12,435 nt of DNA from Chitinophagaceae bacterium (lineage in GTDB: Bacteria; Bacteroidota; Bacteroidia; Chitinophagales; Chitinophagaceae). The stretch is taken from contig JAIEQT010000489.1 in assembly GCA_019747455.1 (NCBI GenBank), positions 1 to 12,435 on the forward strand. Reading direction: 5' to 3'. A program made the position numbers and the translations under genes. Positions within the stretch are counted from its first letter, which is position 1. The number at the start of each line of letters is the position of its first letter. This document shows positions 1 through 12,435 of this stretch, piece by piece. Under the pieces are notes generated by a model, which saw nothing but the letters and a program-made list of their open reading frames with translations, was not told the origin of the DNA and ran no database searches.

Positions 1-333
1 CACAAAGTAATCGTATGAAACGTTCTGACCACCCGACGTTCCGACGATCCTCACCCTTCCCTCCTCATGCCCCATGAACTGTAAACTATCGTTCTGGTAT
101 ACATAACTACCAATATAACTTGTGGTAGTGGTCTTTACTTGCGGACTTGTTTCTTGCGTGCGTTTCTCTAACTTATTACCTGCTGCATCATAAATATATT
201 TAATCGTTCCCTTGCCGGCTACTGTTACTGTGTATGGCAGGTTTAAATGATTATAGGTAATACCTGTGATATCCTTATTCTTGTCTTGCGTGAGGTTGCC
301 CCGCCTGCTTCGCATTCGGGCAGGCATTCTCAT
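1..333 (-). CDS. Third RHS core copy, 5'-truncated, runs off the window
   Basis: Read from 333 down to 1, this frame stays open and encodes YD-repeat RHS core sequence nearly identical to the two other cores here, for example NLTQDKNKDITGITYNHL, KGTIKYIYDA and SYVYQNDSLQFMGHEEGRVR. RHS repeats normally build a hollow beta-shell around a C-terminal effector. RHS homology starts only at the Gly-Asn codons near 300-295. Upstream, in frame, the sequence reads MRMPARMRSRRG, encoded wholly by a palindromic repeat, and a stop (TAA, 345-343) lies just before it. The 5' two thirds of an RHS gene is therefore missing and the ATG comes from the repeat. It is probably a silent or orphan cassette whose C-terminal tip lies beyond base 1. 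Whether it is translated is unknown. Confidence 0.8.
   Translation of the reverse strand, partial: MRMPARMRSRRGNLTQDKNKDITGITYNHLNLPYTVTVAGKGTIKYIYDAAGNKLEKRTQETSPQVKTTTTSYIGSYVYQNDSLQFMGHEEGRVRIVGTSGGQNVSYDYFV

Positions 334-12435: not shown

What the first reader, a model, noticed from the sequence alone, without database searches (positions are those of the whole stretch)
1..12435. Full-length RHS gene followed by orphan tip modules, each paired with a lipoprotein
One RHS gene with all delivery domains is followed on the same strand by two 5'-truncated RHS cores. The two visible tips are unrelated to each other (M15-like versus DUF4329-like), and each is followed within 4 nt by a different lipoprotein gene. 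This mirrors Rhs/CDI loci of Proteobacteria with orphan toxin/immunity cassettes, but here in a Bacteroidota setting with an Ig-stalked RHS and lipoprotein partners. The tips could be swapped onto the full-length gene through the shared core.
Basis: partly seen in the sequence, partly recalled or inferred. Interest (0 to 1): 0.75.

Follow-up and report, generated by a model that had tools for sequence, protein, structure and literature searches.

The report
Bacterial toxin gene with spare tips
A bacterium related to Sediminibacterium carries a large toxin-delivery gene followed by stored spare toxin tips, each beside its own probable antidote gene; related tip-and-antidote pairs sit on the working gene in some species and in storage in others.

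Summary
On the minus strand lie a 5'-incomplete Ig-stalked RHS gene (4670-12433), a 133-aa lipoprotein-like gene, a truncated RHS module with another tip and a 221-aa lipoprotein-like gene, and the start of a third module. The first tip looks like an M15/LAS cell-wall peptidase; the second is a JAB/JAMM domain (DUF4329). Two more contigs of the MAG probably extend the locus: C455 (third tip, small membrane protein) and C373 (SpvB/RHS-like gene, then signal peptide and Ig domains).

It is a Chitinophagaceae version of the Rhs orphan-cassette arrangement. Six tip-plus-partner pairs (tips 53-89% identical) are orphan in one genome and on a full-length RHS in another; the best crosses genera at 89% although the cores share 40%. 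In one congener, cassettes begin at a DNA block with nearly invariant codons. HExxH tips have exported partners in 28 of 29 cases. Also new here: palindromes of about 25-33 nt interrupt the window's orphan cores and mark both visible breakpoints; Y1 transposase genes occur in this MAG but in 0 of 9 congeners. In-strain exchange, toxicity and immunity are untested. New variant of a known kind.

The parts
4670..12433 (-). RHS gene, 2587 aa, 5'-open: Ig-like stalk, DUF6443 (about 8573-8941), RHS core, Rhs_assc_core (about 5342-5599), C-terminal tip
   Evidence: ORF; Pfam (DUF6443 E 2e-40, Big_2, Ig_7); NCBIfam (TIGR03696 E 7e-14)
4670..5344 (-). tip of the main gene, 224 aa: M15/LAS-like peptidase with conserved SxH...D...HxE (about 4685-4831)
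4264..4665 (-). 133-aa lipoprotein-like partner of the main tip (LLAC near residue 17); predicted immunity protein
   Evidence: ORF; classed lipoprotein by my rule; no Pfam family; NCBIfam only below cut-off
4089..4126 (-). conserved header upstream of orphan module 2
   Evidence: repeat D10, 87% to 415-452; header alignment score 98.5 vs maximum 64.5 of 300 shuffles
3968..3991 (-). palindrome at the 5' breakpoint of orphan module 2
1396..3976 (-). orphan module 2: truncated RHS core (3608-3976 and 2077-3591, in two frames) plus tip
   Evidence: 91% and 68% aa identity to the main core; alignment
3585..3610 (-). palindromic insert (25-26 nt) that shifts the frame of module 2's core
1396..2082 (-). 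tip of orphan module 2, 228 aa: JAB/JAMM domain (DUF4329, Tox-JAB-2)
734..1399 (-). 221-aa lipoprotein-like partner of the module 2 tip; predicted immunity protein
   Evidence: ORF; classed lipoprotein by my rule; 3 relatives besides itself in the protein search
415..452 (-). conserved header upstream of orphan module 3
300..325 (-). palindrome at the 5' breakpoint of orphan module 3, identical to 3585-3610
1..303 (-). orphan module 3: truncated RHS core, running off the contig; probably continues on C455 (L013)
   Evidence: 87% aa; window ends at core residue 869, C455 starts at 879

Best explanation
This is a polymorphic-toxin locus of a Sediminibacterium-like Chitinophagaceae bacterium. The expressed RHS protein probably has a SpvB/RHS (TcB-like, name recalled) partner encoded just upstream, carries a signal peptide and an Ig stalk, and presents one C-terminal toxin tip. 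Here that tip is an M15/LAS-type cell-wall peptidase, and the adjacent lipoprotein protects the producer. The downstream modules are stored cassettes of core end, tip and immunity gene. They are not deliverable as they stand. They keep immunity to tips that the lineage or its neighbours use, and they are exchanged with the main gene and between species by recombination in the shared core. Shown by comparison: modular structure, tip and partner found in both positions, mosaic core. Inferred: toxicity, immunity, delivery route, exchange in this strain.
For: Core/tip/partner structure. Six tip+partner pairs orphan in one genome and full-length in another. The strongest is a Chitinophaga hostae orphan vs a Sediminibacterium sp. 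full gene: tip 89%, partner 79%, core 40%, one 1524-nt DNA block of 88.5% starting at the core-end motif. C455's tip and partner are 64% and 60% identical to those on a full-length Sediminibacterium RHS. A G011 orphan pair is Ribonuclease+Barstar by Pfam, a known enzyme-inhibitor pair; the homologous pair is on a full-length RHS of G010. Of 39 tip pairs alike through the C-terminus, 15 are full/orphan mixed, near the 48% that random placement of 81 full and 50 orphan tips would give, so tip families do not keep to one position. Both window tips have relatives predicted as ORFs starting at the core-end Met. A 96% identical core tract over 300 nt is comparable with the 522 bp/95% proposed as recombination tract in Salmonella (PMC3967940, passages). 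SpvB/RHS gene next to the Ig-RHS gene in G021, and a similar gene before a signal-peptide/Ig ORF on C373.
Against: No strain pair shows a swap. The window's orphan cores are frame-broken, so they may simply be decaying. C373, C635 and C455 share no overlapping bases, so the joined locus, and C455's orphan status, are inferred. In two of the six pairs the tip is no closer than the core and in a third only slightly, so shared descent could explain them. Eight of the 15 mixed C-terminal pairs have no matching partner. The upstream genes scanned in G011 and G010 gave no SpvB hit, and 33 of 81 full-length modules showed no gene like G021's upstream.
Confidence: 0.75

Rival explanations
1. The downstream modules are a graveyard: displaced tips left by past replacements, with only the immunity genes kept by selection; they no longer exchange with the main gene. 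(Not wholly exclusive of the best explanation: it may hold for the window's modules and not for the family.)
For: Frame-shifting palindromes in the orphan cores; no signal peptide; in G011 the sequence upstream of the block is decayed in several modules.
Against: Tip ORFs are open and close to their partners (median gap 4 nt, 118 of 127 within -35 to +30, though partners were sought only within -35 to +160); related cassettes occur on full-length genes elsewhere; in G011 the core-end codons are nearly invariant while later conserved residues vary.
Confidence: 0.35
2. The lipoproteins are not immunity proteins but accessory or carrier proteins for the tips.
For: No Pfam family over its cut-off for either window partner; their role is untested.
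Against: Partner type follows the tip: HExxH tips have exported partners in 28 of 29 modules, other tips in 37 of 77, and a ribonuclease tip has a Barstar partner.
Confidence: 0.1
3. Assembly or binning artefact: the modules come from collapsed repeats or from another organism.
For: 650-contig MAG, 76.6% complete; the contig ends lie in repeated core or Ig DNA; the palindromes are absent from 15 congeners.
Against: C455 carries the only copy found in the MAG of a gene I recognise as murB (recalled), nearest to congener G021 (66%); similar arrays in the near-complete congener G011.
Confidence: 0.07

Closest known systems
Rhs main/orphan loci of Salmonella and other Enterobacteriaceae (PMC3967940; abstract and passages seen)
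   Same: main rhs gene, downstream orphan tip/immunity fragments without start or export signals, long near-identical core tract, orphan tips found on full-length genes elsewhere
   Different: no T6SS hallmark found in the two full-length relatives scanned; relatives start with signal-peptide-like N-termini (by eye), many with a SpvB/RHS-like gene upstream; Ig stalk here; many exported partners; palindromic inserts in the window's orphans
RHS polymorphic toxins with TcdB/TcaC-like (SpvB) export, Bacteroidetes included (PMC3482391; passages seen)
   Same: signal peptide, SpvB, RHS repeats, interchangeable C-terminal toxins; Tox-JAB-2 is DUF4329
   Different: in G021 SpvB and RHS-tip parts are two adjacent genes; JAB tips have lipoprotein-like partners in 6 of 6 loci of the window's family where a partner is readable, which argues for action outside the cytoplasm rather than the nuclease role suggested there
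TANFOR polymorphic toxins of Bacteroidetes (PMC7073777; passages seen)
   Same: Bacteroidota, polymorphic C-terminal toxins with downstream immunity genes
   Different: no TANFOR domain among the window's Pfam hits; RHS carrier; the terms 'orphan' and 'lipoprotein' do not occur in that text

Membership tests
RHS polymorphic toxin | RHS core with Rhs_assc_core followed by a variable C-terminal tip | tested here: met
   TIGR03696 in main gene and module 2; 83 tip clusters among 131 modules
RHS polymorphic toxin | cognate immunity gene immediately downstream | tested here: inconclusive
   position met; neutralisation not testable here; Barstar partner in a relative
Rhs orphan cassette (Salmonella type) | displaced 3' core fragment + tip + partner downstream of a main gene, with long near-identical core DNA | tested here: met
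Rhs orphan cassette (Salmonella type) | recombination onto the main gene in one lineage | not testable with these tools
   only cross-species position changes seen
T6SS-delivered Rhs effector | N-terminal PAAR/VgrG-type domain | tested here: inconclusive
   window gene lacks its 5' end; no such Pfam hit in one full-length RHS each of G011 and G010
CDI (CdiA) | TPS domain and FHA repeats with CdiB partner | tested here: inconclusive
   no such Pfam hit in the window; 5' end missing
TcB/TcC-like RHS pair (names recalled) | adjacent SpvB/RHS gene and RHS-core gene with C-terminal tip | tested here: inconclusive
   for: G021 has SpvB (E 2.2e-7) then DUF6443 RHS; C373 gene 59% identical to G021's at its end; a gene like G021's upstream of 48 of 81 full-length modules. 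Against: no SpvB hit in upstream genes of G011 and G010; C373's piece lacks the SpvB part and is a separate contig
DUF4329 / Tox-JAB-2 (JAMM fold) | E, H[ST]H, S, D pattern and JAB fold | tested here: met
Peptidase M15 / LAS | zinc site SxH...D...H with Hedgehog/DD-peptidase fold (motif and fold name recalled) | tested here: inconclusive

The most novel reading that the evidence does not exclude
Chitinophagaceae share a cross-genus pool of toxin-tip cassettes with a defined left end. A core-end DNA block coding for (H)YYPFGLTMxG acts as the exchange site and is kept at DNA level: a cassette can land in an orphan slot or replace the tip of the full-length gene. In the window's lineage an IS200/REP-like palindromic element, moved by a Y1 transposase, preferentially enters or bounds the silent modules and drives their truncation.
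Probability: 0.25. Interest if true: 0.7.

Novelty: new variant of a known kind. Interest (0 to 1): 0.5.

Why it matters
It takes the main-plus-orphan Rhs logic, worked out experimentally in Salmonella, into an environmental Bacteroidota family whose carrier gene often has a SpvB/RHS-like neighbour. It gives a comparative test of tip exchange: the same tip and partner in storage in one species and armed in another. The link between tip chemistry and partner export predicts where uncharacterised tips act; it places JAB tips outside the cytoplasm, against the earlier nuclease suggestion.

Tried and rejected
Led nowhere: the search for related loci with the single core (no relative); PDB sequence search with the M15-like tip (one hit at E 0.57), with the RHS core and with G021's SpvB/RHS gene (none); the profile A1 hit only the core end of an Rhs protein and of a teneurin-like protein. 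Paper searches for Rhs+Chitinophaga+toxin+immunity+orphan, SpvB+Bacteroidetes+Rhs+TcC, and Rhs+Sediminibacterium+toxin gave 0 papers. That says only that the held library lacks those word combinations. Pfam gave one stray hit over cut-off to a relative of the M15-like tip (Mito_fiss_Elm1, P0134), which I do not follow.

Rejected: that the palindromes are common dispersed repeats of this MAG. Two strict patterns hit only orphan RHS DNA there (3 of 3 and 3 of 3 own hits). But palindromes with the same TGCGAAGCA centre lie 5' of the Y1 gene on C469, so a looser family is not confined to RHS, and the MAG is incomplete. Rejected: that every tip has a lipoprotein partner.

Dropped or doubtful rows: one search kept 131 of 141 hits (tips under 90 aa or identical tips removed). 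Of the 50 orphans, 6 have frames open to the start of the fetched stretch and could be cut full-length genes, and one module of L080 is counted twice in two overlapping frames. Of the mixed full/orphan pairs with a matching partner, two weak ones are left out of the six: L070/L078 (32% tip) and L013/L085 (33%, N-terminal part only). The comparison 28 of 29 vs 37 of 77 leaves out 18 multi-TM partners, 4 modules without a partner, and the JAB and M15 tips. Export was called with my own lipobox/hydropathy rule, not SignalP. An entry of my notebook says 14 congeners; the calls show 15.

Full report
1. What is in the window. The window is a whole contig (C635) of a MAG of 2.81 Mb in 650 contigs, 76.6% complete. 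The 78 named loci kept from a scan for the RHS core (best 80 of 273) are mostly Chitinophaga, with Sediminibacterium and other Chitinophagaceae. The closest by identity are a record (JAECQP010000041.1, 65%) whose length, 26,146 bp, equals that of contig C46 of congener G021, and Sediminibacterium records (63% and 55%); the genus is thus inferred. The genes of interest are on the minus strand. The RHS gene 4670-12433 has Ig-like domains, DUF6443 and the Rhs-associated core and is open at its 5' end. Its tip is followed 4 nt later by a 133-aa lipoprotein-like gene. Module 2 has a truncated core in two frames (3608-3976; 2077-3591), a second tip, and a 221-aa lipoprotein-like gene overlapping by 4 nt. 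Module 3 starts near 325 and leaves the contig.

2. Beyond the window. C455 of the same MAG starts at core residue 879, where module 3 leaves off at 869. It ends in a third tip (220 aa) and a 129-aa partner 11 nt on, classed multi-TM, then a 152-aa ORF and, on the other strand, a RelE-like gene. C373 ends with a SpvB/RHS-like gene (its SpvB part lies off the contig) and, 5 nt on, an ATG ORF with a signal-peptide-like start and Ig-like repeats. In G021 the same order is on one contig: a 1191-aa SpvB/RHS gene, then an Ig-stalked DUF6443 RHS gene. No end overlaps join the three MAG contigs, so the order C373-C635-C455 is inference. C455 carries the only copy found in the MAG of a gene I recognise as murB (recalled), closest to a congener, which supports its binning. 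Of 81 full-length modules, 48 have an upstream gene like G021's (phmmer E <= 1e-5). The upstream genes scanned in G011 and G010 gave no SpvB hit.

4. Array in relatives. Of 40 genomes searched, own included, 12 have core matches. G011 has one full gene, 6 orphan modules downstream and 2 upstream on the other strand. Over 96 loci, 131 modules were kept: 81 full, 50 orphan; up to 6 of the orphans may be cut full-length genes and one is counted twice. In 6 of 8 G011 orphans, homology to the full gene starts at nt 3280-3286. In the block coding YPFGLTMG, five codons are identical in all nine copies, the Thr codon in eight, and the last Gly codon in the eight copies that keep Gly; of 26 later conserved columns, 25 use two or more codons. 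Parts of the block recur in other congeners, so codon bias may contribute. Of 37 orphans with a complete core end and not at a contig edge, 15 have at most 9 open codons upstream of it; the window's module 2, with 435, is the second longest.

5. Exchange between positions. Six pairs have tip identity of 53% or more and a matching partner, orphan in one genome and full-length in another. Tip/partner/core identities in percent: 89/79/40 (C. hostae vs Sediminibacterium sp.), 85/76/55 (C. barathri vs C. solisilvae), 64/60/56 (C455 vs Sediminibacterium sp.), 55/53/40 (ribonuclease/barstar, G011 vs G010; 118 residues aligned), 54/39/54 and 53/27/57. In the last two the tip is no closer than the core, so shared descent could suffice. 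Of 39 tip pairs alike through the C-terminus, 15 are full/orphan mixed, 19 full/full and 5 orphan/orphan; random placement would make 48% mixed (81 x 50 / 8515). Of the 15 mixed pairs, 7 have a matching partner and 8 do not. In the first pair one 1524-nt block of 88.5% identity starts 18 nt before the core-end motif. Both window tips have relatives whose predicted ORFs begin at the core-end Met (P0125, P0126, P0001), though gene-caller starts are not proof of an orphan. The recombination model is that of Koskiniemi et al. for Salmonella (PMC3967940, abstract and passages).

6. Tip chemistry and partner location. HExxH tips have partners with a lipobox or N-terminal hydrophobic segment in 28 of 29 modules, other tips in 37 of 77 (Fisher p 1e-6; rows left out are told under Tried and rejected). 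Counted once per tip cluster: 18 of 18 vs 26 of 57, p 1.4e-5. A search of 396 genomes of the order found DUF4329 in 11. Of the 7 in the window's family, 4 have a readable partner, each lipoprotein-like by eye; one is a fragment without partner; two are below cut-off and showed no RHS core. With the window and G011 that makes 6 of 6 readable. Four long RHS-DUF4329 proteins of another family (L161-L164) have no clear partner.

7. Palindromic inserts. Seven palindromes of about 25-33 nt lie in the orphan modules of the window (3) and C455 (4); the patterns hit none in the main gene. Both visible 5' breakpoints in the window coincide with one. Two strict patterns hit 3+3 places in the MAG, all in orphan RHS DNA, and none in 15 congeners; they hit 5 and 1 places in nine genomes of the order, and reversed controls hit none. 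The MAG has two Y1 transposase genes, one strong (E 1e-21) and one at the cut-off; 0 of 9 congeners and 4 of 5 genomes of the order have any. The C469 gene has two GACTGCGAAGCAGTC palindromes upstream that share the centre of the window's 26-nt element. An IS200/REP-like element (family recalled) is inferred; why its strict form is seen only in RHS orphans is unexplained. Because inserts such as 3585-3610 shift the frame, these orphan cores cannot be read through in one frame.

8. Verdict. The arrangement is a real polymorphic-toxin storage array. I found no description of this combination (Chitinophagaceae array, SpvB/RHS-like neighbour, exported partners, palindromes) in the searches, of which I opened passages of three papers only (the Salmonella paper came). 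Toxicity, immunity and in-strain exchange remain to be shown.

Noticed in passing
window 554-734, + strand: C-terminal fragment of what looks like an HTH regulator (family recalled, not tested) between the module 2 lipoprotein and module 3.
   Followed up: no
L013 (C455) 2825-3151, - strand: RelE toxin (PF06296, E 4.6e-8) at the far end of the RHS array.
   Followed up: partly
L013 (C455) 2214-2672, + strand: 152-aa ORF after the third tip's partner, no Pfam family at E <= 0.05; possible solitary immunity gene.
   Followed up: partly
[quoted passage not shown]
   Followed up: no
window 300-325, 3585-3610, 3968-3991; L013 236-257, 508-534, 549-573, 753-774; L205 upstream of the Y1 gene: Short palindromes in orphan modules; palindromes with a shared centre next to a Y1 transposase gene.
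   Followed up: partly
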